Assembly: GCA_902557845.1 (NCBI GenBank)
Contig: CACEBX010000003.1
Location: forward strand, 1-64,000
Direction: 5' to 3'
DNA from: Rhodospirillaceae bacterium
GTDB lineage: Bacteria; Pseudomonadota; Alphaproteobacteria; TMED109
DNA length: 64,000 bases
A model generated the notes under the pieces. That model made no database searches. It had not been told where the DNA came from and worked only from the letters and a program-made list of their open reading frames with translations. Shown here piece after piece: positions 1 through 18,869 of this stretch (within the stretch, counting starts at the first letter, position 1; each line of letters starts with the position of its first letter). Both the position numbers and the translations under genes were made by a program.

Positions 1-366
1 CTTGATAATAAGAGTAAAGTTGTTTTATATAAAACAGAGGGTAATTTTAAAACTGATTTAGATCTATATGGTAGTACAGATTGTTTGGGTGTATTTAAAA
101 AAATTAATAATGCCGCAGATTTAGATCTTACCTGTGAATTTGTTGACCAAAATAATAACAAAATGTGGGCAACTTTAATAAGACAAACTGAGGATATAGA
201 TGCAGGGGTAGGAAGAATGTTTATATTTGGAGGAACAGGAAAGTGGAATTATTTAAAAGGTACTTCTTGCAAATACGCAGTGACCTTAAACAATTCAATA
301 TGGTTTACTTCTACTATTTGTAATGTAGATGAAGACAAATATAGTAAATTTAAAAAGGAAGAGTAA
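1..366 (+). CDS. Exported GTGK-motif protein, 5'-truncated by window edge
   Basis: The reading frame is open from base 1, so the start codon and signal peptide lie outside the window. The C-terminal part shows GGTGKWNYLKGTSC and a second cysteine (STICNVD), the same layout as four other genes here (833, 1370, 2504 and 8193). Conserved features of this family are G-T/S-G-K/P-aromatic, a cysteine 6-8 residues later, and a final cysteine, which suggests one disulfide in a periplasmic or secreted beta-rich protein. The function is unknown. A TTG at 85 could serve as a start, but this is unlikely because the upstream frame is open and family-like. Confidence 0.75.
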   Translation, partial: LDNKSKVVLYKTEGNFKTDLDLYGSTDCLGVFKKINNAADLDLTCEFVDQNNNKMWATLIRQTEDIDAGVGRMFIFGGTGKWNYLKGTSCKYAVTLNNSIWFTSTICNVDEDKYSKFKKEE

Positions 367-456
367 ATGATTACAGAAACTTTTTTACCAATGTTTTATA
401 TGTTAATCATATGAAAAATAATTTTGTAAAAAGTAGAGATAAAAAATCTTAAAACT

Positions 457-672
457 TTAAGTTTCAAGATTCTCATTCCCTTTACTGGCATCTTTAGGAA
501 TACATTCTGATTTTGTTTTAATTTCTTTGCCAGGAAATTTAAAAGAGAAGTCTATTTTTTTTGATGCTTTTAAACATTCTTCTTTATTACTATAGGTTAT
601 TCTAAGTTCTATATCTTTTGACTCTTTTTCAGGAGCGCTTAGAGTAAGTACAATTAAAAGAATATATGTCAT
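457..672 (-). CDS. Small putative exported protein, 71 aa
   Basis: A short hydrophobic start (TYILLIVLTLSAP) looks like a minimal signal peptide, followed by a charged body with two cysteines (EECLKAS and SECIPK) that could form a disulfide. It is not recognised as a known family. Its ATG overlaps the TGA of a recombinase-like gene remnant on the same strand (ATGA overlap), the same arrangement as at 2953. The upstream remnant and short length leave some doubt that it is expressed. Confidence 0.5.
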   Translation of the reverse strand: MTYILLIVLTLSAPEKESKDIELRITYSNKEECLKASKKIDFSFKFPGKEIKTKSECIPKDASKGNENLET

Positions 673-734
673 AAACCGTTTATAATACCCTTATCATAAA
701 TATCAGAATAGAAATCAGAACTTAATTCAGAATA
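669..734 (-). pseudogene. Recombinase-like gene remnant, copy 1 (C-terminal tail)
   Basis: Read on the minus strand, this fragment encodes SDFYSDIYDKGIING and then a stop, matching the tail of the larger remnant at 2950-3217 (SDFYLDIYDKSII) and the one at 4632-4745. Only about 22 codons survive and a stop (TAG, 735-737) closes the frame upstream. Its TGA overlaps the ATG of the minus-strand gene at 672. Confidence 0.6.
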
Positions 735-758
735 CTATAAATAAGATTATAATTATAA

Positions 759-774
759 TATAACATATGTTATA
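759..774. repeat. 16-bp perfect palindrome upstream of exported-protein pair
   Basis: TATAACATATGTTATA is a perfect inverted repeat about 60 bp before the ATG at 833. It could be an operator for the tandem exported genes 833 and 1370. In such AT-rich sequence a palindrome of this length may also arise by chance. Confidence 0.25.
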
Positions 775-832
775 AACTACCATTTGGTCTAAAATTAACT
801 TATTTTATATAATATAGTAATGGAGGTATGAA

Positions 833-1348
833 ATGAGGATAGTATTGCTTTTACTTTTTTATTTATTTTTTGCAAAAAATCTATTTTCTGGTGAAATGTT
901 ATGGAATGCTTACGGTCATTATGAATTTGATAAGGTATTTAATCTTTCAGAGAATAAACAGATATATTTTTTTAATAATAAACTTGTTACTACAACAAGC
1001 ATAGGACATAACTCAAGTGGAGGGTGTAAAGGACATGTATTGTACGAGAATAATATAGATAAAGGGGGTTTTTTTGTTTGTGAGTCAATGGATACTGATG
1101 GAGAAAAGTTTTTCACAGAATTTTCAGCAACCAGAGGAGAAAAAGAAGCATATGGTTTACAAAAGTTTAAAATCATTGCTGGCAGTGGAAAGTGGACAGA
1201 ATTAGTCGGGCAATCATGTATTGGGGCATGGTCTCAAATAAGACCCCTAGATAAAGAACTTAAAAATGCTAGTTTTCTTTGGAAAGGAAAATGTGAAGTA
1301 CCTGACAAGACTCTCGATAGAGTAAGAAATTATAAAAAACCTCAGTAA
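833..1348 (+). CDS. Exported GTGK-motif family protein
   Basis: The 171-aa product begins with a clear signal peptide (MRIVLLLLFYLFFAKNLFSG). The body carries paired cysteines (SGGCKGH and FFVCESMD) and the family signature near residue 125, AGSGKWTELVGQSC, with a last cysteine in KGKCEVPD. It is closest in layout to its neighbour at 1370, which starts 21 bp after this stop; the two look like a tandem duplication and probably form one transcript. A GGAGG-type ribosome site precedes the ATG. The family is not named here; the GTGK-aromatic motif recalls dirigent or allene-oxide-cyclase-like beta barrels, which is inference only. Confidence 0.8.
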   Translation: MRIVLLLLFYLFFAKNLFSGEMLWNAYGHYEFDKVFNLSENKQIYFFNNKLVTTTSIGHNSSGGCKGHVLYENNIDKGGFFVCESMDTDGEKFFTEFSATRGEKEAYGLQKFKIIAGSGKWTELVGQSCIGAWSQIRPLDKELKNASFLWKGKCEVPDKTLDRVRNYKKPQ

Positions 1349-1369
1349 CATATTAGAAGGGAGTATTTT

Positions 1370-1846
1370 ATGAAAATAGTATTTTGCTTAGTTTTATTTT
1401 TAACTTTTAGTATAAAGTCTGCGGAATTTACTTTTGAAGCATATGGTTTAATTAATATTGAAAACTCTGTGGTTACAAAAAATAAAGAATACACATATTT
1501 TTCTTATAAAAATGAGGGCGTTATAATCACAAACATTGATAGAGTAGGAGAAAGTCATTGTGCAGGAGGTTTAAATATAAGTAGAGGCAGAATGAATGGT
1601 GATGTTCTTTGTGAAAATATAAGTGGCGAATATTATTTTTATACAAAGTATTCAAACTTCAATATGGACCCTACAAATAATATATTAAAATTTGAAATAG
1701 TAGACGGAACAGGACCTTTTTTAGAATTGGTCGGACAGAAATGTACTGCTGCATATCTACCTATTCAATCAGATAAATATTTATTTAAAGGAAAATGTGA
1801 TATACCTGATGCCAACTTTCTCAGAATGAAAAACTTTAAAGACTAA
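1370..1846 (+). CDS. Exported GTGK-motif family protein
   Basis: A 158-aa protein with a signal peptide (MKIVFCLVLFLTFSIKSAE). Family features are the paired central cysteines (ESHCAGG and DVLCENI), the signature DGTGPFLELVGQKC (K replaced by P), and a closing cysteine in KGKCDIPD. It lies 21 bp after the related gene at 833 with an AGAAGGGAG ribosome site, so co-transcription is likely. The pair differ widely in sequence yet keep all four cysteines, consistent with two disulfides in the periplasm. The function is unknown. Confidence 0.8.
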   Translation: MKIVFCLVLFLTFSIKSAEFTFEAYGLINIENSVVTKNKEYTYFSYKNEGVIITNIDRVGESHCAGGLNISRGRMNGDVLCENISGEYYFYTKYSNFNMDPTNNILKFEIVDGTGPFLELVGQKCTAAYLPIQSDKYLFKGKCDIPDANFLRMKNFKD

Positions 1847-1981
1847 AAATTGGTTTTGCAAAGTTACTTCATCGGTCAAAACTATTCTATTACTGCAGAA
1901 TAGCAGTGTAGTGGTATAATAAGTTAGTTTTTATATTATTTTAATACCTTTAGCATTTAATTTAAATCAAAGGAGAAGAAT

Positions 1982-2507
1982 ATGAAGTATTTTAAAATTT
2001 ATTTATTAATTTTTTTTTTTGTTGTTAAATTATTTAAAAGCAAATTCATCAGATAATATTAATCACATTAAAAGTTTATTAGAAGGTAGGTATGAACTTG
2101 TTTATTGGAAACAAGATAATTTGAAATTTAATTATCCACAAATAGCAGGTACATTAGTTGTAAAAGATAATAAAATATCATTCACTTTAGATAGTAATAT
2201 GAAAGAAAATGAATCTCTGAAAATTATAGGGTGGGGTAACTATAACCTTTCTGTAAATGAATATAATTATGGATATTTTGATTTTAAAAAAATGACTGAT
2301 AATGGAGCAGATATGAAAGTAAATAAAACTCTACCATGGCAAGGCATGAGAAAATATAGTGTTTTATTAAAGAATGATAAATTATTACTTACTTCATCAA
2401 CAGGGAAGCAAACGTGGGAACTTGACAAAAAGTCTTTAATTTATACTGATAAGGAATGGGGTACGGATAAAAAAGAAGTTATAAGGTACTGGAAAAGAAT
2501 TAATTAG
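1982..2507 (+). pseudogene. Exported LEGRYELVYW-family protein, frameshifted in T11 tract
   Basis: The ATG at 1982 with ribosome site AAGGAGAAG begins MKYFKIYLLI, almost identical to the start of the gene at 3400. A run of eleven T (2010-2020) then shifts the frame; removing one T restores a continuous 174-codon frame matching the paralog (LLLNYLKANSSDN versus LFLNCLKVNSSEN). The rest (from 2019) is intact: LLEGRYELVYW, IGWGNY, PWQGMRKYSV, TGKQTWEL, EVIRYWKRIN. It is either a phase-variable or slippage-read gene, a young pseudogene, or a base-calling error. The family resembles lipocalin-like barrel proteins in general pattern only. The stop overlaps the convergent gene at 2504 by 4 bp. Confidence 0.75.
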
Positions 2508-2953
2508 TTTAATTTACACTTATGAGTATACCATACAATATCTTTGTGATATTGAACTCCATAAGGACACTTTACACCTACCATTTTTTTATATTTACCT
2601 GTGCCAGCAGTGTAGGTATTTATTCCACCTCCACCTTCTTCAACTGCAGATTTTCTATTGCGAATTGTCCAAAATGTTTCTCCATCCTGATTTGAAGCAA
2701 TACATCTAAAGTGAACATCAGCACTTTTGTCTTTATTAACTAATACATAACCTATACATTTTTCTCTACCGTAATCACCTTTGTTATCCTTCCAAGCAGC
2801 ATATTCACCGTGATAGACTATGAATTTGCTTCCATCTGGATATTCTATAGTGTTCGCATCTGCTGATGTATTGGTACCACCAACTTCATAAATATATTCT
2901 TCAGCAAAGATTTCTAATGGTAAAAAGAAAATAAGTAAAAAAAACATTCTCAT
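2504..2953 (-). CDS. Exported GTGK-motif family protein
   Basis: A 149-aa protein with signal peptide MRMFFLLIFFLPLEIFAEE. It shares with the gene at 8193 the stretches AAWKDNKGDYG (there ASWSDSEGDYG), TFWTIRNR (there TFWLIMNR), AGTGKYKKMVGVKC, and a final KCK, so these two form a subfamily of the exported GTGK proteins. Its ATG overlaps the TGA of an upstream recombinase-like remnant. Its stop overlaps the convergent gene at 1982-2507 by 4 bp. The function is unknown; a periplasmic or outer-surface role is inferred from the signal peptide. Confidence 0.8.
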   Translation of the reverse strand: MRMFFLLIFFLPLEIFAEEYIYEVGGTNTSADANTIEYPDGSKFIVYHGEYAAWKDNKGDYGREKCIGYVLVNKDKSADVHFRCIASNQDGETFWTIRNRKSAVEEGGGGINTYTAGTGKYKKMVGVKCPYGVQYHKDIVWYTHKCKLN

Positions 2954-3217
2954 AATTTCAATATAATACTCTTATCATAAATATCCAAATAGAAATCAGA
3001 TCGTACTTCAGGATACTTGTCCTTTAACTTTTCATCCTCACTCTTTTTCTTTTTATTATATAATCTATATGACCACTCTAAATATCTTTCCTCTTACACT
3101 AAGTATCCTTTTCTTATTTAGATGTTCCGCAATATCATTTAAGGTCATTCCTTTTTCTCTTAGTTTTGATATAGTTTCATATAGGAAGAATTGATACTCG
3201 GTATAGTGGTGGGACAT
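2950..3217 (-). pseudogene. Recombinase-like gene remnant, copy 2 (most complete)
   Basis: From an internal ATG at 3217 the minus strand encodes MSHHYTEYQFFLYETISKLR, then a helix-turn-helix-like stretch (MTLNDIAEHLN) and SVRGKIF, a pattern like the Recombinase domain of serine recombinases (IAxxLNxxG...RGKxW). The frame breaks near 3080 and continues one base shifted as KKKKSEDEKLKDKYPEVRSD, FYLDIYDKSIILKL, stop. About 89 codons in all, with no catalytic resolvase domain. The stop overlaps the ATG of the exported gene at 2953. Related tails occur at 669 and 4632. Confidence 0.6.
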
Positions 3218-3399
3218 TTGTAATATGGGACGACGTATTGTAGTAGTAAAACAGAAGAATGCATCAGCAGGCAAAAATGCGCACCTACAACGATAGCCAG
3301 TAACTAAATAATAGATGTATTTGGTACATTATGATTAACAGGTGAGTTATTATATTATTTTAACATTATATAAGTTAGATCAGTGAGGAAAGAGAAAAT

Positions 3400-3924
3400 A
3401 TGAAGTATTTTAAAATTTATTTACTAGTTTTGTTTTTATTTTTAAATTGTTTAAAAGTAAATTCATCTGAAAATATTATTGATATTAAAAAATTATTAGA
3501 AGGTAGGTATGAACTTGTTTATTGGATAGAAAATAAAATACAATATGATTACCCAGAAGTAGCAGGAGTATTAGTCATAAATAATAATAATGCTTTAATT
3601 ACTATGGATAAAAATATGCATTCAAATAAGTCTGTAGAATTAATTGGTTGGGGAAGATATAAAATTAACACTAAATCATTTCATATTGGATGGCATGATT
3701 GGAAGTTATTATTGATAGAAAATAATATTAAAACAGTAAAAAAAAAATCTCCTTGGGAAGGTATGAGAGAATATAGTGTAGCTTTAAAAGGTAATAAATT
3801 AGTTTTAACCTCACTAACTGGCAAACAATCTTGGGAGTTAAGTCAGAATTCCTTAGTTTATAGGGATAAAGAGTGGGGTGAAGATAAAGATGAAGTTATA
3901 AGGTATTGGAAAAGAGTTAATTAA
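3400..3924 (+). CDS. Exported LEGRYELVYW-family protein
   Basis: A 174-aa protein with signal peptide MKYFKIYLLVLFLFLNCLKVNSS. It is the intact partner of the frameshifted gene at 1982; shared blocks are LLEGRYELVYW, IGWGxY, PWEGMREYSV, KLVLTSLTGKQSWEL and EVIRYWKR. A tryptophan-rich, beta-strand-like pattern suggests a small barrel such as a lipocalin-like domain, but no family is recognised with certainty. A GAGGAAAGAGAAAA stretch precedes the ATG. Being the intact copy, it may be the functional survivor of a duplication that flanked genes 2504 and 2950. Confidence 0.75.
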   Translation: MKYFKIYLLVLFLFLNCLKVNSSENIIDIKKLLEGRYELVYWIENKIQYDYPEVAGVLVINNNNALITMDKNMHSNKSVELIGWGRYKINTKSFHIGWHDWKLLLIENNIKTVKKKSPWEGMREYSVALKGNKLVLTSLTGKQSWELSQNSLVYRDKEWGEDKDEVIRYWKRVN

Positions 3925-3948
3925 TTAGTATGACTAATATAAAAAGTA

Positions 3949-3968
3949 TAACCTCACTAACTGGCAAA
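3949..3968 (+). repeat. 20-nt exact copy of an internal gene segment
   Basis: The 20 bases TAACCTCACTAACTGGCAAA lie 25 bp after the stop at 3924 and are identical to 3806-3825 inside the gene (coding for LTSLTGK). This looks like a short duplication or template-switch scar. Confidence 0.6.
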
Positions 3969-4005
3969 AGCATTAACTGTAGAATAGGGGTTTAATTGGG
4001 AATTA

Positions 4006-4611
4006 TTATTTATTATACCATTTAATAGCATCTTCAAACCTATCATCTCCCCAAAACAACTCTTTTTCTACTATGAAGGTAGGAGCACCAAATATACCCT
4101 TTGATTTAGCAATTTTAGTTTGTTCAATTAAACTATTTTTAACTTCATTTGTTAATGCTTTCTTTTTAATCTCTTCGTAATTTATATTTAATTTTTTAAA
4201 TGTAAGAATAAAGTTCTCGTCCTCTCCAGCAGGTAATTTATTTATAAACCAATTATGGTAAGTTAATTCTAAATATTCTAAACACCATCCTTCATTGACT
4301 CCTAATAATGCAATTTGGTTTGCAAGTTCCATATTTTTTAAAGGATAAGGGACAGGCAGACTTGGGATAACTATTTTATAAATTTCTGCTCTTCTTTGAA
4401 TATCTCTCCACATGTGATCGACTTTAATTTTTTTTGATGGTGGAAATGGTCTATTATCCATTTCAATCATAATGCTTCTAACATTAAATGGTTTTAAATT
4501 AAGATTAATATTTTTTTTTTTTACTATATCTTTTATTCTGGTTACTGTTAAATAAGTATAAGTACTTCCTATAGAAAACCATAAATCAATTTTTTTTTTT
4601 TCCTTATTCAA
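4006..4611 (-). CDS. 2-hydroxychromene-2-carboxylate isomerase / DsbA-family kappa-GST-like protein
   Basis: 201 aa, the usual length for the HCCA isomerase group of the DsbA/kappa-GST superfamily. The N-terminal strand KIDLWFSIGSTYTYL (residues 7-21) carries the serine that replaces the thioredoxin cysteine and contacts glutathione; the C-terminal GIFGAPTFIVEKELFWGDDR is the cis-proline loop and family hallmark. Members isomerise aromatic degradation intermediates or act as glutathione-dependent reductases, and the substrate here is unknown. It starts with TTG. The gene stands alone on its strand, 20 bp after a recombinase-like remnant. Confidence 0.85.
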   Translation of the reverse strand: MNKEKKKIDLWFSIGSTYTYLTVTRIKDIVKKKNINLNLKPFNVRSIMIEMDNRPFPPSKKIKVDHMWRDIQRRAEIYKIVIPSLPVPYPLKNMELANQIALLGVNEGWCLEYLELTYHNWFINKLPAGEDENFILTFKKLNINYEEIKKKALTNEVKNSLIEQTKIAKSKGIFGAPTFIVEKELFWGDDRFEDAIKWYNK

Positions 4612-4631
4612 TTCTTAATCCCTAACTATTA

Positions 4632-4745
4632 TTAATACCATTTACTAAACATAATACTTTTATCATAAATATCCAGATAGAAATCAAATCATATTTTAGT
4701 ATACTTCTCTTTTAACTTTTCATTTGTTACTCTTTTTCTTTTCAT
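4632..4745 (-). pseudogene. Recombinase-like gene remnant, copy 3
   Basis: The minus strand reads MKRKRVTNEKLKEKYTKI, then a TGA, then FDFYLDIYDKSIM and a stop. It aligns with copy 2 (SEDEKLKDKYPEVRSDFYLDIYDKSII) and copy 1, but has an in-frame stop where copy 2 has arginine. It lies 20 bp upstream of the minus-strand gene starting at 4611, the same position relative to a downstream gene as the other copies. Confidence 0.6.
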
Positions 4746-4820
4746 TATAGAATTATATGTATTATATTATTATCTATACTTTATTTAACTTACTTTTTAA
4801 ATAATCAAGGCTTCATATAA

Positions 4821-5210
4821 ATGAGTAGAGCATTAAAATTTAATTGTATTAAACAATGGAAGAATATTATTTTATCAGGTGATGCAGATAACCTTGAAAA
4901 GATTATTCATAAAAATGCAACTTTTTATTCTCCTATAGTTTTTACTCCTCAAGTAGGAAAAAAAAAAGTAGTACACTATTTATCTAATGCTGTGAAAGTA
5001 TTTAAATATAGGGATTTTAAATATACAAATATAATTAAAAATGAAAACTATTATAGCGCAGAATTTGAAGCAATATTTGATAAAATTATTGTAAATGGTA
5101 TAGATTTAATAAATACAAAAAATAATTTGATATATGAATTCAAAGTTTTTTTAAGACCATTACAAGGATTAGAAGTGGTTTGGAAAGAGATGGAAAAACA
5201 GCTTAAGTAA
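4821..5210 (+). CDS. SnoaL / NTF2-like fold protein
   Basis: 129 aa, the size of a single NTF2-like cone domain. Typical features are an N-terminal helix (INxxxxKQWKNIILSGDADNL), the strand HKNATFYSPIVFTPQVGKK around residues 32-50, then HYLSNAVKVF and a set of strands ending FKVFLRPLQGLEVVWKEM. Such proteins bind or isomerise small ligands, often steroid- or polyketide-like; the ligand here is unknown. It is isolated between the HCCA isomerase (diverging) and the methyltransferase (converging). Confidence 0.75.
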   Translation: MSRALKFNCIKQWKNIILSGDADNLEKIIHKNATFYSPIVFTPQVGKKKVVHYLSNAVKVFKYRDFKYTNIIKNENYYSAEFEAIFDKIIVNGIDLINTKNNLIYEFKVFLRPLQGLEVVWKEMEKQLK

Positions 5211-5236
5211 CATAACCTAGTTGTGATAACTGTTTA

Positions 5237-5986
5237 TTATCCAGCTTGCATTCTTTTTTTTGATAAGCTAACGTAATTTTTTTCTATCTCTATTCCTATA
5301 AAGTTTCGGTTATTTATTTTACAAGCTAACCCTGTTGTGCCACTTCCAGCGAATGGGTCTAAAACGTAATCTTGTTCTTTGGTTGTTGCTAATAAAATCC
5401 TATTGATAAGTTCTATTGGTTTTTGTGTAGGGTGTCTTCCAAACTTCTTTTCATCTTTTTTAGGTGAAGTCATAGTCCATACATCTTTCATTTGTTTATT
5501 ATTATTTAGCAACTTCATATCTTTATAATTGAATAAATGTTTTGACTTATTATTCTTTGCTGCCCATATGATAGTTTCTGTGCTGTGTGTAAAATTTCTA
5601 CAAGCAAGATTTGGAGGTGGATTGGGTTTTTGCCATGTTATATTATTTAATATTTTCATATTAATCTGTTGCATAGCATATCCTATTGAATAAATTACAT
5701 GGAGGGTTCCTGAGACCATTATAGTTCCATTAGGTTTTAAGACTTTTTGACATCTAGTTAACCAAGCTATATTAAACTCGTGATTTATCTCTGCTCCTTT
5801 TGACTTATCCCAGTTTCCTTTATCTACCTTTACCATCTTTCCATTTTGACAAGTTATTCCACCATTCGACAAGAAATATGGAGGATCTGCATAGATGAAG
5901 TCAAAAAACTTTCCGTTTTTACTATAAAAATCATCTAAAACTTTTAAACAATTTCCTTGTAAAATTTTTTGATAAACTTTATTCAT
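5237..5986 (-). CDS. DNA adenine-N6 methyltransferase, beta class (orphan)
   Basis: Motif order is DPPYF near the N-terminus (motif IV, IYADPPYFLSNGG) and DPFAGSGTTG near the C-terminus (motif I, AdoMet binding), which defines the beta group of amino-methyltransferases. ITCQNGKMVKVDKGNWDKSKG and GRHPTQKP are typical of the DpnA/YhdJ/CcrM-like group. The ATG at 5986 gives the usual start (MNKVYQKILQGNCLKVL); a TTG 12 codons upstream (6022) is possible but adds an unrelated extension. No restriction endonuclease is adjacent, so it is probably a solitary methylase acting in regulation, repair or the cell cycle. It lacks a CcrM-type C-terminal extension. Confidence 0.88.
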   Translation of the reverse strand: MNKVYQKILQGNCLKVLDDFYSKNGKFFDFIYADPPYFLSNGGITCQNGKMVKVDKGNWDKSKGAEINHEFNIAWLTRCQKVLKPNGTIMVSGTLHVIYSIGYAMQQINMKILNNITWQKPNPPPNLACRNFTHSTETIIWAAKNNKSKHLFNYKDMKLLNNNKQMKDVWTMTSPKKDEKKFGRHPTQKPIELINRILLATTKEQDYVLDPFAGSGTTGLACKINNRNFIGIEIEKNYVSLSKKRMQAG

Positions 5987-6052
5987 TTTTGCATAACTTA
6001 AAGTAGTTATTATTACTTTCAAAATAATTCGTAAATAATTTATAATAGCATA

Positions 6053-6368
6053 ATGTATGTATACATAATTTTATTTTTTGCTATAGATTTTGAGGTTCTA
6101 GGTACATATTGTTGCCAGTTTCAAAAAATTTTACTAAAGTGGTACCTACTGCCATATTGCTTATATCATATACAATATCGATTTTTTTATTAGCATATTT
6201 ATCTACAAGGTTGCCTTTACCAATAATTTATTCATTCTGGGCTGGTTTAGGTATATTTCCTGTAACGTTACTTAGTTTCTTTTTATATAAGCAGGTTTAA
6301 ATTGGCAAATATTTATAGGTTTATTTTTAATTATTTTGGGTGTTGTAATAGTAAGTATATATAAATAA
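6053..6368 (+). pseudogene. SMR-family small multidrug efflux transporter, double frameshift
   Basis: Three successive frames together rebuild a complete SMR protein of about 105 aa. Frame one from ATG 6053 gives MYVYIILFFAIDFEVLGT (first membrane helix, with an acidic residue near the usual position 14). The frame at 6109 gives LPVSKNFTKVVPTAILLISY and PLPIIYSFWAGLGIFPVTLL (the family's AYAxWxGxG motif). The frame at 6291 gives AGLNWQIFIGLFLIILGVV and ends at 6368. Each change fits a one-base deletion. SMR pumps export cationic drugs as dimers; this copy should be dead. Confidence 0.8.
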
Positions 6369-6477
6369 AAGCATGAAGAAATTAAAAATGTAAATATATG
6401 TAAATAAATAATATTTTAATTGTAAACTTAGTAAAATCTAGTATAATATTTGAGGTTTAACATATCCGGGAGAGAAT

Positions 6478-6642
6478 ATGGACTATAACTTAAATAAAGA
6501 AAGAGAGAAAAGACTAGCTAGAACTGGTAAATGGTTTAAAGAGTCTTCATCAGGAAGAAATAAAGACATTTACCTAACTTACTTAATACCACTATTATTA
6601 ATTATTTCACTTTGCGCTACTGTATTTATAGCAATTAAATAA
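6478..6642 (+). CDS. Small single-pass membrane protein, 54 aa
   Basis: A short frame with a good ribosome site (CGGGAGAGA, 6-10 bp before ATG). The N-terminal half is highly charged (MDYNLNKEREKRLARTGKWF), followed by KDIYLTYLIPLLLIISLCATVFIAI, one membrane helix at the C-terminus. The expected topology is a basic cytoplasmic domain with the tail in the inner membrane. No family is recognised. It is followed by a hairpin that could terminate transcription. Confidence 0.6.
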   Translation: MDYNLNKEREKRLARTGKWFKESSSGRNKDIYLTYLIPLLLIISLCATVFIAIK

Positions 6643-6669
6643 TAATAAGGTATTAGTAATTAACTTGTA

Positions 6670-6700
6670 AGTAAAAATATTTAAAAAAACTATTTTTACT
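6670..6700. terminator. AT-rich hairpin between convergent genes
   Basis: AGTAAAAATA (6670-6679) pairs with TATTTTTACT (6691-6700) around an 11-nt loop, followed by TTTAT. It lies between the stop at 6642 and the convergent gene ending at 6742, so it may stop transcription from both sides. There is little GC in the stem, so it would be weak. Confidence 0.4.
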
Positions 6701-6741
6701 TTATAGAGAGATATATTTTTTAAATTTTTATGTAGTGGAAT

Positions 6742-7506
6742 TTATATTTTTTTACAAAAAAAAGGGTAGGTAATAGTTCCTTTTAAATACTTTCTATTTT
6801 TATCATAACAAGTAACTTTATTTTTGCCATTTGCCCAAAATAAATGTGGATTCAACGAGCTGTATTTATCTTTTATAAAAAAGTCACACCCCCACTTATT
6901 TTTTTCTTCTTTTTCACAGTATTGTTGACCAATTTGTAAATGCAGATGTCTTACTCTTGCCATACAGGGAAATGAAATCTTTTCTGGCAATTTTGCTACA
7001 GGCATTCCTCTTTTCACAATATCTCCCTCATTAACTAAAAAATCTCCAGTATGTGTATATATAGCAATTAAACGTTCGCCACTAGTCGATTTTCCATGAT
7101 CTATAACAACAGATGGCCCTTCACATAACTTTTCTTCTGTTTCTAGAACTTTTCCATCTGCTATAGCTATTATTGGTTGATTAGCATTTCCAATGATATC
7201 TATACCTTGATGGATTTGCATTCTAGTTCTACCGTTCACTCCATACATACTGTTAAAATCAGAAATAACTGGATTTACCTCGTATCCTTCCGGGCTAACA
7301 TCTGTAATATTCGCTTTACAAAATTCTAATCTACGATCAAACTCAGCTTCTAAGTCTGGTCTATCTAAATAAAATTCTAATGCCTTTTCACAATACTTTT
7401 TTATATTAGCAGATGATTCTTGAGCTTTAGTTCCTAAGCTAATTAAAATCAAGTAAAATATATACATTATTAAAAAGGAAAATTTATATTTTATAAAATA
7501 TCTCAT
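6742..7506 (-). CDS. M23-family (LytM) peptidoglycan endopeptidase
   Basis: 254 aa with a long N-terminal hydrophobic signal (residues 9-28, ending GTKAQES). The M23 domain occupies roughly residues 85-215: HQGIDIIG gives the first zinc ligands (H-x3-D), and HLHLQIG gives the C-terminal H-x-H. Between them are IAIADGKVLE, VVIDHGK and YTHTGDFLVNEGDIVKRGM, the typical beta scaffold. It would cut peptide cross-links in the periplasm during wall growth or division. It has no LysM or coiled-coil domain. The metal ligands look intact, so it should be active rather than an EnvC/NlpD-type activator. Confidence 0.9.
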   Translation of the reverse strand: MRYFIKYKFSFLIMYIFYLILISLGTKAQESSANIKKYCEKALEFYLDRPDLEAEFDRRLEFCKANITDVSPEGYEVNPVISDFNSMYGVNGRTRMQIHQGIDIIGNANQPIIAIADGKVLETEEKLCEGPSVVIDHGKSTSGERLIAIYTHTGDFLVNEGDIVKRGMPVAKLPEKISFPCMARVRHLHLQIGQQYCEKEEKNKWGCDFFIKDKYSSLNPHLFWANGKNKVTCYDKNRKYLKGTITYPFFCKKI

Positions 7507-7609
7507 ACTGTTTATATATTATTTTTTTTTTTAAAATAAAGCATTAATAATTTTATTAAGTATAAATTAAAATACTAGGAAATTAATTTATTAATATTAT
7601 AATCTAAAA

Positions 7610-8182
7610 ATGATAAAAATTAATGATTTAATTGAAATAAATGGAGTTTATTGCTCAAAAGAATCCAAGTCTGCATATAGTGGAAAAGTAGATGGGGAAG
7701 CAAAAGGATCTTTTAAAAATGGTCTTCCTGATGGTTTATGGAAAGAGTATTCAAATAAAGGCATTCTTTTGTCTGAAACTAATTATATTAATGGTATTTT
7801 GGAAGGGAAGTTTCTAAATTATTTTAATGAGGGGCAAATAAAGGAAAAAGGACATTTAGTAAATGGTAAACTAGAAGGAAAATTTTTTGAATTTTATAAA
7901 ACAGGAAAATTGAAACTTAAAAAAATCTATAAAAATGACAAAGAAGAAGGTGAATGTAGAACTTATTATGAAAACGGGGAAGTTAAAGAAAAGAGACTTT
8001 ATCTTAATGGTAAACTAGAAGGAGAATATTACTATTATTATAGCAGCGGCAAATTGTGGATAAAAAATAATTATAAAAAAGGTTTGTTGCATGGGGAAAG
8101 AAAAGTTTATTATGAGAGTGGAGAACTTGAAAAAAAAGAAGATTTTAAAAATGGTTTCAATTTATCTGGAACATATCATTGA
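7610..8182 (+). CDS. MORN-variant / YwqK-type repeat protein
   Basis: 190 aa made of about seven repeats of 22-24 residues with core pattern NGxxEGxxxxYYxxGxxKxKxxYKNG (for example NGKLEGKFFEFYKTGKLKLK and NGKLEGEYYYYYSSGKLWIK). This is the MORN_2 pattern found in proteins called YwqK antitoxin-like. There is no signal peptide, so it is probably cytosolic. The repeats form a beta-meander surface for binding a partner or membrane. The exported gene at 8193 follows after 10 bp and may share its transcript. No toxin gene is recognisable next to it. Confidence 0.8.
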   Translation: MIKINDLIEINGVYCSKESKSAYSGKVDGEAKGSFKNGLPDGLWKEYSNKGILLSETNYINGILEGKFLNYFNEGQIKEKGHLVNGKLEGKFFEFYKTGKLKLKKIYKNDKEEGECRTYYENGEVKEKRLYLNGKLEGEYYYYYSSGKLWIKNNYKKGLLHGERKVYYESGELEKKEDFKNGFNLSGTYH

Positions 8183-8192
8183 GTAAAAAATT

Positions 8193-8639
8193 ATGCGATA
8201 TTTTATTTTAATTTTAATATTTTTTTTAAATACAATTTGTATTGCCAAAGAAATAACGATTGATATATTTTTTGTATCAAGTGCAGGTACAAATAAAGTA
8301 ATGAAATTTGGTGAAATTTTAACATACAGACAAACTGAAGGAATTGCTAGCTGGTCTGATAGCGAAGGAGATTATGGTCTGTTAGAATGCTTGGGAAACT
8401 ATGTAACTAATAAAAATGAAGGAACCATATTAAATAATTATTGCAAAGGCACCAATCGTAATAAAGATACATTTTGGTTGATTATGAATAGAAACTCAAA
8501 TGATTATGAAGCAGGAATAGGAAAAACTACTTATTTGCAAGGTACTGGAAAGTTTAAAAAGTATAAAAATGTTGTATGTGTGTATGGTGTTGAAATAATT
8601 GAAGGAATGGCAGTATTGAAACAAAAATGCAAGCTATGA
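8193..8639 (+). CDS. Exported GTGK-motif family protein
   Basis: 148 aa with signal peptide MRYFILILIFFLNTICIAKE. Shared with the gene at 2504: ASWSDSEGDYG, a conserved cysteine (LLECLGNYV), TFWLIMNR, QGTGKFKKYKNVVC and a final KCKL. It is the fifth member of this family in the window and sits 5 kb from the others, next to the MORN-like gene. It starts 10 bp after that gene's stop, and only 7 bp separate its stop from the exonuclease start, suggesting one transcript. The function is unknown. Confidence 0.8.
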   Translation: MRYFILILIFFLNTICIAKEITIDIFFVSSAGTNKVMKFGEILTYRQTEGIASWSDSEGDYGLLECLGNYVTNKNEGTILNNYCKGTNRNKDTFWLIMNRNSNDYEAGIGKTTYLQGTGKFKKYKNVVCVYGVEIIEGMAVLKQKCKL

Positions 8640-8646
8640 TTTTAAA

Positions 8647-9432
8647 GTGATAATTGCTACATGGAATATAAATTCAATAAGATTAAGAATAGAAAGTGTT
8701 TTGGATTTTGTTAAAAAAAATAATATAGACGTATTGTGTCTTCAGGAAACCAAAACTGAAAATAAGTTTTTTCCTCTAGAGAAATTTATAGATAATGGTT
8801 TAAATCATTTTAATATTAATGGTCAAAAATCTTACAATGGAGTAGCAATTTTATCAAAATTACCTTTTTTAGAAAAAAAAAATATTAAATTTTGTGGTAA
8901 GAGTGATGCTAGGCATGTATCGGTTAGATTTCAAAATGGTATACTTCTTCATAATTTTTATGTTCCTGCAGGAGGAGATGTTCCTGATCCTGCAACAAAC
9001 CCTAAATTTAGACATAAACTAGATTTTCTTAATGAAATGAAAAATTACTTCAATAAAGAAAAAAATAAAAAAAGTATACTTGTAGGGGATTTAAATATAG
9101 CACCAAGTGAAAACGATGTTTGGTCACATAAACAGCTTTTAAAAGTTGTATCATATACTTCAGTTGAAAGAGAATATTTGCATAAGTTAATCAAAGAGGG
9201 TGATTGGGTTGATGTAGTAAGAATAAATAATTCTCCTAATCAAAAATTATTTTCTTGGTGGTCATATAGAAGTAGAAATTGGAAATTATCTAACAGAGGT
9301 AGAAGATTAGATCATATTTTTTCTTCTTCTGATATGAAACTAAAAATTAAAAACATAAATATTTACGAAAATTTAAGAGGTATAAATAAACCAAGTGATC
9401 ATGTTCCTATAACAGCTGAGGTGAAACTATAA
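8647..9432 (+). CDS. xthA: Exodeoxyribonuclease III (AP endonuclease)
   Basis: 261 aa, normal for ExoIII. Metal-binding and catalytic blocks are all present: TWNINSIR (Asn), LQETKTE (metal Glu), NFYVPAGGD, VGDLNIAPSENDVW (Asp/Asn), RRLDHIF, and KPSDHVPI (catalytic Asp-His). It cuts DNA at abasic sites and trims 3' ends in base-excision repair. It uses GTG as start (IIATWNINSIR is the usual N-terminus). It is close behind the exported gene at 8193. Confidence 0.95.
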   Translation: MIIATWNINSIRLRIESVLDFVKKNNIDVLCLQETKTENKFFPLEKFIDNGLNHFNINGQKSYNGVAILSKLPFLEKKNIKFCGKSDARHVSVRFQNGILLHNFYVPAGGDVPDPATNPKFRHKLDFLNEMKNYFNKEKNKKSILVGDLNIAPSENDVWSHKQLLKVVSYTSVEREYLHKLIKEGDWVDVVRINNSPNQKLFSWWSYRSRNWKLSNRGRRLDHIFSSSDMKLKIKNINIYENLRGINKPSDHVPITAEVKL

Positions 9433-9454
9433 ACAATTTGTAAAAGATTGTTTT

Positions 9455-9859
9455 AGTCAATATAGAATTACTACTGATATTTCAGGACTTTATATCGCTC
9501 TTTGGCGGCCTTATCATTATATAGGGCTAGAGTTAGTACAAAGCATTTATTCAATAGCCTTAAATAAACAACCAACTGGACATACTAAGTTTTATAAAGC
9601 GGATGTAGCAACTATAGCTAAAAAAAATCTTTAAAAACGAGAAAAATTAGATGGAGAAGGTGGTTTTACTGTCAGAGGTTAAGGCATAACAGCAGAGTTA
9701 AGCAAAAAAAATAATATTCTATCGTTGGGTTTATCAGACGGGATAATAGTTAAAAAAGATATTAAAAAAAATGATTTGATTACTTTAGATATGGTTGATG
9801 CTAATTTTCCTAAGGAAATAAGAATTGCAAGAGATTATGAATATTCGCTAATAACATAA
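9455..9859 (+). pseudogene. C-terminal remnant of SAF-domain Gfo/Idh/MocA-type oxidoreductase
   Basis: One frame reads GLYIALWRPYHYIGLELVQS, then ADVATIAKKNL-stop-KREKLDGEGGFTVRG-stop-GITAEL, SLGLSDGIIVKKDIKKNDLI and ends at 9859. This matches the C-terminal third (SAF domain) of the homoserine-dehydrogenase-like oxidoreductases common in alphaproteobacteria, whose typical text is YRPYHLIGLEL and GEKLDGEGGxxVxGK. Two in-frame TAA codons (near 9632 and 9680) and the missing NAD-binding part show it is dead. It fills the 440-bp gap between xthA and the hydrolase gene. Confidence 0.8.
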
Positions 9860-9875
9860 TAAAAATTCACTACAG

Positions 9876-10589
9876 TTATGAATGTGTATGAGGATTATTA
9901 AATGCTTCTAAAATATGAGTAAAAGTTTTTGTTTGAGAGTTTAAAGTTTCAGGCTCATTGAAATTCTTATCTGAAATTCTGGTAAAGTTTTTTTCACACT
10001 TATCATAAATATTTAGTTTAATATTGTTAATGTTATCTAAAAATTTTAGTTTATCATTTTCTCTTAGGTCATTATAAATTTTCTTTGCTAAATGAATTAA
10101 CATTGGTCTTCTTATAAATGTGTCATGTTCCTGAAAAAAACTAAAACCATCAAAGTCATAGCATACTGAGGACTCTATATCTAACCATAAACCAGATAGA
10201 TAAGATAGATTTGCTCCTATGCCATATCCAATAGTAGTAACCAATCCATTACACTGAGGAGTTTCCCTCAGCCATTGTAAGCAACTTACTACATCTTGGT
10301 ACCCTTTATCAATATTGTAGGTTTTAACTAATTTAGATGCTTGTTCTAAGTCTGTTTCTTTATTGCTATTAAGCTCACAACCAGGAAGGTCTCTCCAAAA
10401 TAAATCGGGAACAAATACAGTATACCCCTTTGCCGCACATAATTCAGCCATACTTCTAATATTAGCATCAATTCCAAATTCTTGATGAAGAAGCAATACT
10501 CCAGGATATACCCCATTTGCTGGAGCTGTTACATAGCCTTTAAACTTAACTTCTTTATCTTTATTTATTTCAACTAAACCTGTAGGCAT
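9876..10589 (-). CDS. Dienelactone hydrolase-family protein lacking catalytic residues
   Basis: 237 aa with the whole DLH alpha/beta-hydrolase layout: PGVLLLHQEFGIDANIR (Glu37 of the family's E-x-G/F-x-N motif), YTVFVPDLFWR, WLRETP, and the tail YDKCEKNFTRISDKNFNE. The nucleophile elbow, normally G-x-C-x-G-G, reads GYGIGA (residues 121-126), so the Cys is Gly. The histidine of the HGF motif is Lys (KNF). Both changes should abolish normal hydrolysis, so it may be a binding or regulatory pseudoenzyme. The start at ATG 10589 is well supported by the family N-terminus. Confidence 0.75.
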   Translation of the reverse strand: MPTGLVEINKDKEVKFKGYVTAPANGVYPGVLLLHQEFGIDANIRSMAELCAAKGYTVFVPDLFWRDLPGCELNSNKETDLEQASKLVKTYNIDKGYQDVVSCLQWLRETPQCNGLVTTIGYGIGANLSYLSGLWLDIESSVCYDFDGFSFFQEHDTFIRRPMLIHLAKKIYNDLRENDKLKFLDNINNIKLNIYDKCEKNFTRISDKNFNEPETLNSQTKTFTHILEAFNNPHTHS

Positions 10590-10674
10590 TTAAAATTTCC
10601 TTAAAATAATATATATACTATTATAATAATAAAATTTAAAAGAAAATTTTATTTATTTAATGTTATAATAAATT

Positions 10675-11145
10675 ATGTTTGATATTGGATGGACAGAAAT
10701 ATTAATTCTTGCAGTAGTAAGCTTGTTTGTAATTGGCCCTAAAGATATACCAAAGTTTTTAGGATATATTGGTAGAATTATTGGAAAGATAAGAGGTATA
10801 TCTAGTGATTTGAGAGAAACAGTAGATGATGCCATAAAAAATAGTGAGTTAGAGGAAGTGAGAAAAGAAATTTCATTTACTGATCCAGAACTAAGTAAAA
10901 ACTTCAATGAAATACTAAATCCAGTTCGCAAAGAAAATAAAGCTAATAATAGTAATCCAGAAAATAATGAAACAATTACCAATGAAACTAAAAAAAATAT
11001 TAATGAACAGAAAGATGAAATAAATAAAAGGCAAGATAATTTAGAATTTGCAGGACCAACGGAAAAATTACCTACAGGGTTAAAGCATATAAGAGAAGAT
11101 ACTGCTAGAGAAGAAAAAAAAACTAGTAAAAAAGAAAATACTTAA
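10675..11145 (+). CDS. tatB: Sec-independent (Tat) translocase protein TatB
   Basis: 156 aa. It begins MFDIGWTEILILAVVSLFVIGPKDIPKFL, the TatB transmembrane segment and hinge, followed by an amphipathic helix (GRIIGKIRGISSDLRETVDDA) and a charged low-complexity tail typical of TatB. It works with TatA and TatC in the inner membrane to export folded proteins. Neither tatA nor tatC is in the window. The MFDIGW start separates it from TatA. It overlaps no gene and is followed after 1 bp by the ArsC-like gene. Confidence 0.9.
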   Translation: MFDIGWTEILILAVVSLFVIGPKDIPKFLGYIGRIIGKIRGISSDLRETVDDAIKNSELEEVRKEISFTDPELSKNFNEILNPVRKENKANNSNPENNETITNETKKNINEQKDEINKRQDNLEFAGPTEKLPTGLKHIREDTAREEKKTSKKENT

Positions 11146-11146
11146 T

Positions 11147-11497
11147 ATGGTACATTTGCTGTATCATAATCCAAGATGTTCTAAATCTCGTGCTTGTATT
11201 AAAATACTAAGTGATAAAAAAATAAACTTCAAAGAAGTACTGTATCTTAAGGATGGTCTTTCTATTTCTAACTTAAAAGATATTGTAAATAATTTAGTTA
11301 GTCCATCATGTGATTTAATTAGAACCAATGAAAAGCAATTTAAACTAGAGCCTTTTACTTTAAACAAAAAAGACTTAATCGTTTCTTTTTTACACAAACA
11401 CCCTATATGTTTACAAAGACCACTTTTCTTTGATGGTTATAATTATATTATATGTAGACCGCCAGAAAAAGTATTACAATATTTAAAAAATAAATAA
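11147..11497 (+). CDS. ArsC/Spx-family glutaredoxin-like reductase
   Basis: 116 aa, thioredoxin-fold ArsC family. The N-terminal NPRCSKSRACIKIL carries the active cysteine, and HPICLQRPLFFDG is the C-terminal R-P-L motif of arsenate reductases (YfgD/ArsC type). It could reduce arsenate with glutathione/glutaredoxin, or serve another thiol role. No ars operon is adjacent. It is packed tightly with tatB before it and the 63-aa gene directly after it (next start at 11498), so an operon is likely. Confidence 0.85.
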   Translation: MVHLLYHNPRCSKSRACIKILSDKKINFKEVLYLKDGLSISNLKDIVNNLVSPSCDLIRTNEKQFKLEPFTLNKKDLIVSFLHKHPICLQRPLFFDGYNYIICRPPEKVLQYLKNK

Positions 11498-11689
11498 ATG
11501 AATCTAAAACAAATAATTAAAAAAGCTCTAATTTTAGTAAATGTATCGCTTTTTGGGTTAGGATCTTTTTTGTGTTTTATAATTGCAGTTACTGAAAGCA
11601 AAGACAGATTTTTAATAAGTGGGATTTTTTTACTATTATTTACAATTGTAAATAATAAAATTATAAAGATATTAGTAGAAAAGTTATGA
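11498..11689 (+). CDS. Small two-helix membrane protein, 63 aa
   Basis: Starts immediately after the ArsC-like stop. Two hydrophobic segments (ALILVNVSLFGLGSFLCFIIAV and ISGIFLLLFTIVNNKIIKIL) with charged ends predict a helical hairpin in the inner membrane. No family is recognised. Its TGA overlaps the ATG of the DUF1289 gene, showing translational coupling within a tatB-arsC-like-DUF1289 operon. Confidence 0.65.
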   Translation: MNLKQIIKKALILVNVSLFGLGSFLCFIIAVTESKDRFLISGIFLLLFTIVNNKIIKILVEKL

Positions 11690-11859
11690 TAGAGTCCCCA
11701 TGTATAGGAGTATGCACATTAATCAATGAACAATGTATAGGGTGTACTCGAACATCAGATGAAATAAGTAATTGGCTTTTTTATGATGACAATGATAGAA
11801 ATGAAATTACTAAAAGATGCCTTCAAAATATGAAAGAAAAAAAAGTAAATAAGAGATAA
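11686..11859 (+). CDS. DUF1289 cysteine-rich protein, 57 aa
   Basis: Reads SPCIGVCTLINEQCIGCTRTSDEISNW, the DUF1289 signature C-x3-C-x6-C-x2-C with the conserved R-T-x-D-E-I-x-x-W, near the start (residues 4-30). The four cysteines probably bind zinc or an Fe-S centre; the family's function is not known. The ATG overlaps the previous stop by ATGA. The fragment after the motif is lysine-rich. Confidence 0.85.
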   Translation: MIESPCIGVCTLINEQCIGCTRTSDEISNWLFYDDNDRNEITKRCLQNMKEKKVNKR

Positions 11860-11950
11860 ATTTATAATAGGTAAATTCTACATAAGAATAGAAAAACTAT
11901 AGTTCTCTGATGCTTTTAAATATTACAATTATATAAAGGAATTATTTTTA

Positions 11951-12442
11951 ATGAATGAGTGCTGGAATTTTTTTAGGTATGCAGAAATTGCGGATATTGA
12001 TGAAATCATAAATTTGGTTAAAGAAAATTATGAGTGGTTTTCACATTTAAATACAGATCATTTTGTTAAAAAAATTAATAATAAAGAATGTATATATGAA
12101 AGTGGAGTTTTAATTACATATAGAATTATTAGTATTGATACAGATCTTGGAACCTTTAAGGTTCCTGCAGGAAACACAATATTAGAACAAATTATTAAAA
12201 ATAAAAAAAATAGCAATTCAAATCTTCTTTATCATGTTTTTACTAAATTTATAAATTGTGCTTCAGGGTCAGTTTATCTAGCAGTTAATAGTAAGAATCT
12301 AAATGCTGTTAATTTTTATAAAAAAATGAATATGATAAAAGTATCAGACACAAAACTAGATTATAATAGACGAGATACCCGTTATGTAAGAGGGTATATA
12401 TATAAAACTAATAAAAAAAACTTAGGAAAGCTTATTCATTAA
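11951..12442 (+). CDS. GNAT-family N-acetyltransferase-like protein
   Basis: 163 aa. The first part (RYAEIADIDEIINLVKENYEWF) is the usual GNAT alpha-1 region and the last part (VYLAVNSKNLNAVNFYKKMNMIKV) is the N-A-x-x-F-Y-x-x-x-G/M-F motif B near the C-terminus. The middle acetyl-CoA loop (R/Q-x-x-G-x-G/A) is hard to see, so activity is uncertain. The substrate is unknown. It has its own start and converges with the DUF393 gene, overlapping by 11 bp. Confidence 0.7.
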   Translation: MNECWNFFRYAEIADIDEIINLVKENYEWFSHLNTDHFVKKINNKECIYESGVLITYRIISIDTDLGTFKVPAGNTILEQIIKNKKNSNSNLLYHVFTKFINCASGSVYLAVNSKNLNAVNFYKKMNMIKVSDTKLDYNRRDTRYVRGYIYKTNKKNLGKLIH

Positions 12443-12776
12443 TATTATATTTTCGATTATACCTATATTTTGCAAACTTTTTATAAATTACACTCATAAT
12501 TCTTTTAACAAAAAAAATGTTTATTAATAACGCTAGATATTTAAAGTATTTATGCTGCTCCCATAAAATTATAAAAGCATCTACTCCAACTTTCTCTTTA
12601 TTGTTATCATCTATAACATGAAGTTCTTTTAGATATTTTTCTTTATTTGTTTTTGAAATAAACTTGCCATTTTGATGAATTCCTATCCAGTTTACATTTT
12701 TAAAACCAAGTTTTTTATAAAACCTAATTTCTCTGCTACAAATTTTACATTTATCATCATAGTATACTTTCATCAT
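12432..12776 (-). CDS. DUF393 (DCC-type) thiol oxidoreductase-like protein
   Basis: 114 aa. The start MKVYYDDKCKICSREIRFYKK holds the C-x2-C pair that gives this family its DCC name (here D-K-C-x-x-C), and GVDAFIILWEQ is its second conserved block. These proteins look like thioredoxin-fold disulfide reductases; the partner is unknown. Starts ATG-ATG; the second Met is as good. It diverges from the cupin gene. Confidence 0.8.
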   Translation of the reverse strand: MMKVYYDDKCKICSREIRFYKKLGFKNVNWIGIHQNGKFISKTNKEKYLKELHVIDDNNKEKVGVDAFIILWEQHKYFKYLALLINIFFVKRIMSVIYKKFAKYRYNRKYNINE

Positions 12777-12814
12777 GGACTTTACCTTTTTATTTTTCTT
12801 TTTATACTAAATAT

Positions 12815-13087: not shown

Positions 13088-13123
13088 TTTTTCTTTTTTA
13101 TTAAATAATAATAATTTTAGTAT

Positions 13124-13717: not shown

Positions 13718-13720
13718 GTT

Positions 13721-14179: not shown

Positions 14180-14212
14180 ATGTATTTTATAACACCTTTT
14201 TAAAGAAAATCT

Positions 14213-16754: not shown

Positions 16755-16794
16755 AGTGTTAATAATAGTAAATTATTTTTAGGGTTTTGTTAAT

Positions 16795-18491: not shown

Positions 18492-18510
18492 ATTTAAATT
18501 TTTATAAAAA

Positions 18511-18867: not shown

Positions 18868-18869
18868 TT

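What the first reader, a model, noticed from the sequence alone, without database searches (positions are those of the whole stretch)
1..2953. A multi-copy family of small exported proteins with a G-T/S-G-K-aromatic motif
Five genes (1-366, 833, 1370, 2504, 8193) share a signal peptide (where seen), a G-T/S-G-K/P-W/F/Y stretch, a cysteine 6-8 residues later and a final cysteine near the end. Sequence outside these points is very divergent, so the family expanded long ago or evolves fast. I cannot assign it to a known family. The motif resembles the GTGK/R-x-x-x-A/G-x-G turn of dirigent and allene-oxide-cyclase-like barrels, which is inference. The genes sit among broken genes, suggesting an adaptive or gene-transfer region.
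Basis: partly seen in the sequence, partly recalled or inferred. Interest (0 to 1): 0.7.

Follow-up and report, generated by a model that had tools for sequence, protein, structure and literature searches.

The report
Mobile arrays of exported barrel proteins
Small-genomed marine bacteria carry dozens of copies of an unnamed exported barrel-shaped protein, and at least some of these genes ride on tiny DNA elements that insert beside tRNA genes and pass between genera, although what the proteins bind or do is still unknown.

Summary
The five window genes belong to one protein family: a profile built without this genome or close orthologues scores all five at E ≤ 8.3e-27. The own genome has 22 matches; in the order 19 of 28 genomes have them, up to 58 in one partial 1.1-Mb genome. 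No Pfam, NCBIfam or PDB sequence family claims it. Two cysteine pairs are kept or lost together, as hairpin disulfides would be. Elsewhere the genes sit in tRNA-bounded islands; one 2.3-kb element is tRNA-Ser(TGA), integrase, repeat, one family gene, duplicated tRNA end. Five members are ≥85% identical to those of another genus, none to the same-genus genome, though housekeeping DNA shows the reverse. Paralogues are ancient; most tested pairs are under purifying selection. The window's own island shows no tRNA remnant; its mobility rests on comparison. Function is inferred: a swappable set of periplasmic ligand-binding barrels, with an inhibitor or immunity repertoire as main rival. New family, known fold, known kind of vehicle.

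The parts
1..366 (+). family member, 5' end missing at the contig start; GTGKW
   Evidence: leave-out profile E 3.3e-35; closest relative in G022, another genus
833..1348 (+). family member, 171 aa, signal peptide, GSGKW; second structure model
   Evidence: E 4.1e-34; pLDDT 90.9; barrel, Z 13.8 to 3g7g
1370..1846 (+). family member, 158 aa, GTGPF
   Evidence: E 8.3e-27
2504..2953 (-). family member, 149 aa, GTGKY, cysteines 66/84 and 129/146; first structure model
   Evidence: E 3.6e-41; pLDDT 86.6; Z 16.0 to 3g7g; 92% DNA / 95% aa to a G022 gene of another genus
8193..8639 (+). family member, 148 aa, GTGKF, between a MORN-repeat gene and an exonuclease-III-like gene; absent at that junction in same-genus G001
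   Evidence: E 1.6e-37; synteny
679..754 (.). repeat D3, copy 7 nt before the start of small ORF 457-672 (-)
2960..3035 (.). repeat D3, reference copy, just upstream of the 2504-2953 start codon; 3' end of a broken HTH gene
   Evidence: like copies just upstream of family genes in L091, L104, L146, L089
3065..3274 (-). remnant of an HTH gene (recombinase-like helix-turn-helix by eye)
4648..4723 (.). repeat D3, copy upstream of a DsbA/isomerase-like gene (named by eye)
7610..8182 (+). MORN_2-repeat protein shared with G001: conserved side of the 8193 gene
   Evidence: Pfam PF07661 3.1e-23; synteny
8647..9432 (+). exonuclease-III-like gene (named by eye), conserved flank
   Evidence: 69% DNA to G001

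Best explanation
SHOWN BY COMPUTATION: the genes form one family of exported-looking proteins with a DUF3237/allene-oxide-cyclase/dirigent-type barrel and two in-register hairpin cysteine pairs. Streamlined marine alphaproteobacteria of one family keep an old, large pool of them. Each genome holds a different sample, members are cargo of islands at tRNA genes, including an element with an integrase and a single family gene, and members move between genera. INFERRED: each protein is a periplasmic or secreted binding barrel whose inside takes one small, probably amphipathic molecule (a substrate to capture or a noxious compound to bind), and integrase-driven gain and loss lets populations match their set to local chemistry. 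The confidence given is for the whole statement including function; I would put the fold at about 0.95 and lateral exchange at about 0.9.
For: Family; copy numbers. Fold. Export: 140 of 142 members have a hydrophobic N-terminal stretch, none a lipobox-like motif (crude tests). Disulfides: C66/C84 both present in 115, both absent in 27, discordant in 1 of 143; C129/C146 136, 6 and 1; cross combinations not associated; 66+84 = 72+78 and 129+146 = 136+139 put each pair in register across a modelled hairpin. Vehicle: L145 9566-11985 = tRNA-Ser(TGA), 333-aa integrase, repeat, one family gene, duplicated tRNA 3' end; G000:C6 = tRNA-Ser(GGA), integrase (PF00589 9.4e-13), AlpA-like gene, four family genes; 11 tRNA-Ser remnants on G000:C15 interspersed with family genes; none in eight control stretches of G001, 157 kb. 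Transfer: reciprocal best hits >=85% aa are 5 with other-genus G022 and 0 with same-genus G001, against housekeeping DNA identity 70-79% and 76-78%. Purifying selection: dN/dS 0.05-0.27 in 19 of 20 pairs. Ligand binding rests on the fold alone: several barrels in the same list are enzymes on small hydrophobic molecules (titles; chemistry recalled).
Against: No ligand, expression or localisation data. No coordinates were available to inspect a cavity. Positions on the hydrophobic face of the strands are mostly less, not more, variable than the other face, so there is no sign of pocket diversification. The window island has no tRNA or tRNA remnant in its first 9 kb. The controls for tRNA remnants come from G001 only, whose own family stretches hold just one remnant, so the contrast within that genome is weak. 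Three of six non-Xer integrase stretches (L147, L148, L149) hold no family gene. Island cargo is mixed, so the family is not their only load.
Confidence: 0.4

Rival explanations
1. Inhibitor or immunity repertoire: each barrel binds and blocks one hostile protein in the periplasm (toxin, lysin, protease), and islands collect such genes as in acquired interbacterial defence clusters.
For: Island-borne arrays of divergent, individually conserved single genes passed between genera, often on alternating strands, so independent units. Orphan immunity genes in such clusters are in print (listing and abstract starts). Small disulfide barrels serve as periplasmic enzyme inhibitors (recalled).
Against: Only 1 of 22 (PDC-M38B, 21.7 bits) and 1 of 134 (SspG, E 0.0013) members touch PADLOC models; that library was not made for immunity proteins. 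No toxin partner noticed next to members, by eye only. No phage match.
Confidence: 0.27
2. Enzymes: exported cyclases, isomerases or dirigent-like proteins, each steering one reaction on a dissolved organic molecule.
For: Solved barrels in the match lists include allene oxide cyclases, Diels-Alderases, dirigent proteins and a pyocyanin demethylase; conserved R100, K145 and D56 (86, 80, 67%) could act on a substrate.
Against: No shared catalytic signature was tested; sequence matches to their Pfam models are at noise level.
Confidence: 0.13
3. Surface or envelope coat that varies to avoid phage or grazers.
For: Different member sets at the same locus in sister genomes.
Against: No lipobox-like motif; low dN/dS in 19 of 20 pairs is unlike antigenic variation.
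Confidence: 0.1
4. Selfish cargo: the genes persist because the elements spread, with little benefit to the cell.
For: Minimal integrase-plus-one-gene element.
Against: Low dN/dS, and arrays persist where the integrase is only a remnant.
Confidence: 0.08

Closest known systems
DUF3237 (PF11578) barrels, e.g. PDB 3g7g, 3c5o, 9m2y (3g7g and 3c5o placed in this family by recall; 9m2y by its title)
   Same: Fold: Z 16.0, 15.1 and 13.7 over 121-128 residues. Exported-looking DUF3237 proteins lie in the same islands of G000 (L113:11162-11713, L106:4415-4981).
   Different: PF11578 is not among the families listed at E 0.05 for 134 members; ours have paired cysteines and run to dozens of copies.
Allene oxide cyclase and dirigent proteins
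   Same: Barrel with a glycine-rich GTG turn; Z 10.8 and 11.2, 10.0 and 10.7.
   Different: Sequence matches at noise: AOC_like 2 of 134 (best E 0.0035), Dirigent 1 of 134 (E 0.044). Bacterial dirigent-like proteins in PMC9344732 (abstract read) are defined by PF03018.
Additive flexible genomic islands and tycheposons (PMC10872708, passages read)
   Same: Repeats of a tRNA 3' end, a tyrosine recombinase, variable cargo rich in unknown genes.
   Different: The minimal element here is about 2.3 kb with one cargo gene, below the 4-200 kbp quoted there for tycheposons; one protein family recurs as cargo.
Acquired interbacterial defence arrays (search listing only)
   Same: Mobile arrays of single protective genes.
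   Different: No link to known immunity proteins or secretion effectors found here.

Membership tests
The new exported-barrel family | Match to a profile that excludes the own genome and close orthologues | tested here: met
   5 of 5 window genes, E <= 8.3e-27
The new exported-barrel family | Cysteines present or absent as pairs 66/84 and 129/146 | tested here: met
   1 discordant of 143 for each pair
DUF3237 (PF11578) | Pfam model match | tested here: not met
   not among the 17 families listed at E <= 0.05 for 134 members
DUF3237 (PF11578) | Barrel fold | tested here: met
   3g7g: Z 16.0, 128 aligned, rmsd 2.8; Z 13.8, 129 aligned, rmsd 2.7
AOC_like (PF18678) | Pfam model match | tested here: inconclusive
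   2 of 134 members, best E 0.0035; the curated cut-off is not shown in that mode
Dirigent (PF03018) | Pfam model match | tested here: not met
   1 of 134 members, at E 0.044
Dirigent / allene oxide cyclase | Catalysis on their substrates | not testable with these tools
   needs purified protein
tRNA-targeting integrative element (L145) | Intact tRNA, tyrosine integrase, duplicated tRNA 3' end in the same orientation | tested here: met
tRNA-targeting integrative element (window island) | tRNA or tRNA remnant at the island | tested here: not met
   none in window 1-9000; the contig starts at base 1, so one end is unseen
Tycheposon | Size 4-200 kbp | tested here: not met
   L145 element about 2.3 kb; size range from PMC10872708
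Tycheposon | Further defining genes of the original description | not tested
   the original paper was not read
Acquired interbacterial defence / immunity | Protection against a cognate toxin | not testable with these tools
   needs experiment

The most novel reading that the evidence does not exclude
An integrase-driven repertoire of single-gene cassettes: streamlined ocean bacteria sample exported recognition barrels from a shared pool, one specificity per cassette, as a modular recognition or protection system of the periplasm with no described counterpart known to me.
Probability: 0.22. Interest if true: 0.85.

Novelty: new variant of a known kind. Interest (0 to 1): 0.62.

Why it matters
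A lineage with genomes of 1-2 Mb keeps up to 58 matches of one unnamed exported family in a partial 1.1-Mb assembly, roughly one per 19 kb. That is unexpected for streamlined cells and implies a strong and varied selective pressure. The minimal integrase-plus-one-gene element makes gain of single functions directly testable. The low-copy relatives in other Alphaproteobacteria offer starting points for finding a ligand.

Tried and rejected
Chance similarity: rejected. Already named family: Pfam, NCBIfam, PHROGs and PDB sequence searches gave nothing beyond weak matches. Phage or plasmid gene: no match in viral contigs, phages or plasmids (that query was the distant homologue L112, not a window protein). 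Matches to predicted viral folds: none at E ≤ 0.001, not used. Defence genes: PADLOC hits weak and in one member each. Fast arms-race evolution: not supported by dN/dS, except one saturated pair at 0.48 (31% aa identity). Recent tandem duplication as the main source: not supported, as the nearest tree neighbour is in the same genome for 20 of 143, against 28.6 ± 6.0 under shuffled labels. Pocket variability: inconclusive, no coordinates (whose last part stopped with an error and was redone). Rfam: no family in window 1-10000; only tRNAs in L145, L102 and L106. Taxonomy: the host was not pinned down; the SAG names gave no paper and no taxon; a link to AEGEAN-169 is my recollection and unverified. 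Literature: searches listed no paper that describes this family; most subscription journals are not in that library.

Rows dropped before counts: the 143-member set is the full-length hits (130-195 aa, spanning the profile) among the 150 hits, plus window:1-363 and own-genome paralogues outside those stretches. A5 is the 134 full-length hits without an X. In one search, 9 close orthologues were dropped from the training set on purpose.
Full report
CHECK OF THE OBSERVATION. MAFFT of the five gives seven invariant columns: four cysteines and three glycines, two of these in the G-T/S-G stretch. A search of the own genome (1,308,113 bases, 72% complete) with one member finds 19 places at E ≤ 1, itself included; a profile of 20 members finds 22 at E ≤ 0.1. 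To avoid circularity I built a profile from 112 members of other genomes after removing nine close orthologues: the five window genes score E 3.6e-41 to 8.3e-27 (for a database of 10,000), against at most 13.1 bits for 1,000 shuffled versions.

SPREAD. In the order, 19 of 28 genomes have matches: 5-58 each in the 11 genomes of genera g1, g3 and g8, 0-4 in the ten genomes of g2, g4, g5 and g6, none in the seven genomes of g7, which are 2.5-3.8 Mb. G022 has 58, at least four of them broken or partial. Contig lengths identify G022 as AG-919-A04 and G025 as AG-422-C09, both deposited as 'Rhodospirillaceae bacterium'. Elsewhere in the class, 6 of 384 other genomes have 1-3 matches; in a phylum draw, 2 of 397 others. 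The four low-copy homologues that I read are also exported-looking proteins; three of them share an 'R..GD...GGGG.G....I.GGTG.Y.G..G.C.Y' type of stretch.

FOLD. With 22 rows, all from the window or from related-loci loci, window:2507-2953 folds at pLDDT 86.6, pTM 0.77, and a divergent type, window:833-1345, at 90.9 and 0.80. Foldseek alone is modest (best E 1.8e-3), but the second aligner gives Z 16.0 (3g7g), 15.2 (4pux), 15.1 (3c5o), 13.7 (9m2y, DUF3237), 12.3 (Cyc15 Diels-Alderase), 11.2 (dirigent domain 7ywe) and 10.8 (allene oxide cyclase 4h6c) for the first, and 13.8, 13.6, 13.1, 12.6, 11.6, 10.7 (dirigent 8th2) and 10.0 for the second. De novo and outer-membrane barrels follow at about 7-10, so the DUF3237 group stands clear of them, the dirigent and AOC rows less so. 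The GTGK stretch lies at the end of strand 107-117 and leads into a short helix 119-124. The two jobs share the same 22 sequences, so they are not fully independent.

CYSTEINES. Over 143 members from seven genomes, C66 and C84 are both present in 115 and both absent in 27, with one exception; C129 and C146 in 136 and 6, with one exception; mixed pairings show no association. Related sequences are not independent, so the Fisher values there overstate the case, but each pair also falls exactly across a modelled hairpin. Beyond residue 25, chains hold two or four cysteines in 139 of 143. With hydrophobic N-termini in 140 of 142, this argues for an oxidising compartment.

HISTORY. Mean identity is 25% within and between genomes. 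In a tree the nearest neighbour is in the same genome for 20 of 143, fewer than under shuffled labels (28.6 ± 6.0), so duplication is old and genomes sample one pool. Of 20 orthologous or nearest pairs, 19 have dN/dS 0.05-0.27; the last, saturated, has 0.48. Family pairs between G000 and the other-genus genomes G022 and G010 reach 89-95% DNA identity, while housekeeping DNA between G000 and G022 is 70% over 6.2 kb and 79% over 1.5 kb, and between G000 and same-genus G001 76-78% over 34 kb. Reciprocal best hits at ≥85% aa: five with G022, none with G001, from 22, 53 and 25 members examined; between G001 and G022 there is one. G001 is 97% complete, so absence there is meaningful. Nine of 20 cross-genus DNA matches of ≥84% and ≥150 bp cover family genes, several starting at the start codon; the others are other island genes and repeats. 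Genus labels are those given by the tool.

VEHICLE. The same comparison exposed repeats that proved to be tRNA-Ser(TGA) 3' ends. G000:C15 holds 11, all on one strand, with family genes and other cargo between them; G013:C5, G001:C2 and G025:C10 have an intact tRNA plus 3, 1 and 3 copies; G022 has three tRNA-Met remnants near arrays. Eight stretches of G001 without family genes, 157 kb, have none. In L145 (G025:C10) the unit is complete: tRNA-Ser 11896-11985 (-), integrase 10827-11828 (-), a ~180-nt repeat at 10482-10645, family gene 9895-10389 (-), tRNA copy 9566-9656; the two tRNA ends share nt 10-90 plus about 60 nt downstream, and the element is about 2.3 kb. G000:C6 carries tRNA-Ser(GGA), an integrase (Arm-DNA-bind_3, Phage_int_M, Phage_integrase), an AlpA-like gene and four family genes at 8159-10166 (the gene caller kept an overlapping frame instead of the first of the four). 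No second tRNA end was found for that element. Of six integrases that I take as not XerC/XerD (from the lower scores), five start within 150 nt of a tRNA and one lies 2.3 kb from one; three of the six stretches hold family genes.

THE WINDOW'S OWN LOCUS. Window 4852-20000 is broadly collinear with G001:C2 (L151). Beyond it G001 has six other family genes where the window has 1-2953, with only the 3' end of 2504-2953 alignable at DNA level; and 8193-8639 sits between a MORN gene and an exonuclease-III-like gene with 10 and 7 nt to spare, while G001 has about 120 nt and no family gene there. So this is a variable site, but no tRNA remnant or integrase is seen in the first 9 kb. Instead the 3' end of a broken HTH gene is repeated three times, two of them directly before starts of other genes, and is found just before family genes in other genomes too; its role is unexplained.

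FUNCTION. Nothing here measures function. The fold, export, disulfides, diversity and exchange fit a set of binding barrels with one target each. I favour small molecules because several characterised proteins in the structural neighbourhood act on them (recalled), at 0.4; protein inhibitors or immunity at 0.27. Conserved R100, K145 and D56 are candidates for a shared structural or binding role.

COMPARISON. It has the fold of, but is not by sequence a member of, the DUF3237 or dirigent families; for AOC_like the sequence test is inconclusive. Its carrier resembles additive islands with tRNA-end repeats described in Methylophilaceae, and tycheposons as summarised there (PMC10872708, passages read). 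In the passages that I read of PMC10308909, PMC10734472 and PMC12416821 I saw no mention of such a family.

Noticed in passing
L145:10482-10645 and copies in L095, L099, L102, L103, L106, L115: A ~180-nt noncoding repeat with AGAGTCGT/ACGACTCT inverted arms lies between integrase and cargo and recurs in islands in the same orientation as the tRNA-Ser remnants; no Rfam match in L145, L102, L106.
   Followed up: partly
window 679-754, 2960-3035, 4648-4723: 3' end of an HTH gene repeated upstream of cargo genes, also just before family genes in L091, L104, L146 and L089.
   Followed up: partly
window 2019-2507 and 3400-3924: Second paralogous pair of small exported-looking proteins, about 72% DNA identity; the first copy is frameshifted near a poly-T run, real or an assembly error.
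   Followed up: no
L113:11162-11713, L106:4415-4981: Exported-looking DUF3237 proteins in the same islands, above the Pfam cut-off: same fold, different family.
   Followed up: partly
L147:12849-14021 and L148:5961-7133: Very similar integrases beside tRNA-Ser(GCT) in G010 and G013 with different cargo, in L147 methyltransferase- and helicase-like genes (named by eye), possibly defence islands.
   Followed up: no
L028:913-1278: One member matches PADLOC PDC-M38B at E 3.1e-5 over profile 148-244 of 281.
   Followed up: partly
L146:9258-10889: 543-aa integrase-like frame in G022, 2.3 kb from tRNA-Tyr and 3.3 kb from a family gene.
   Followed up: no
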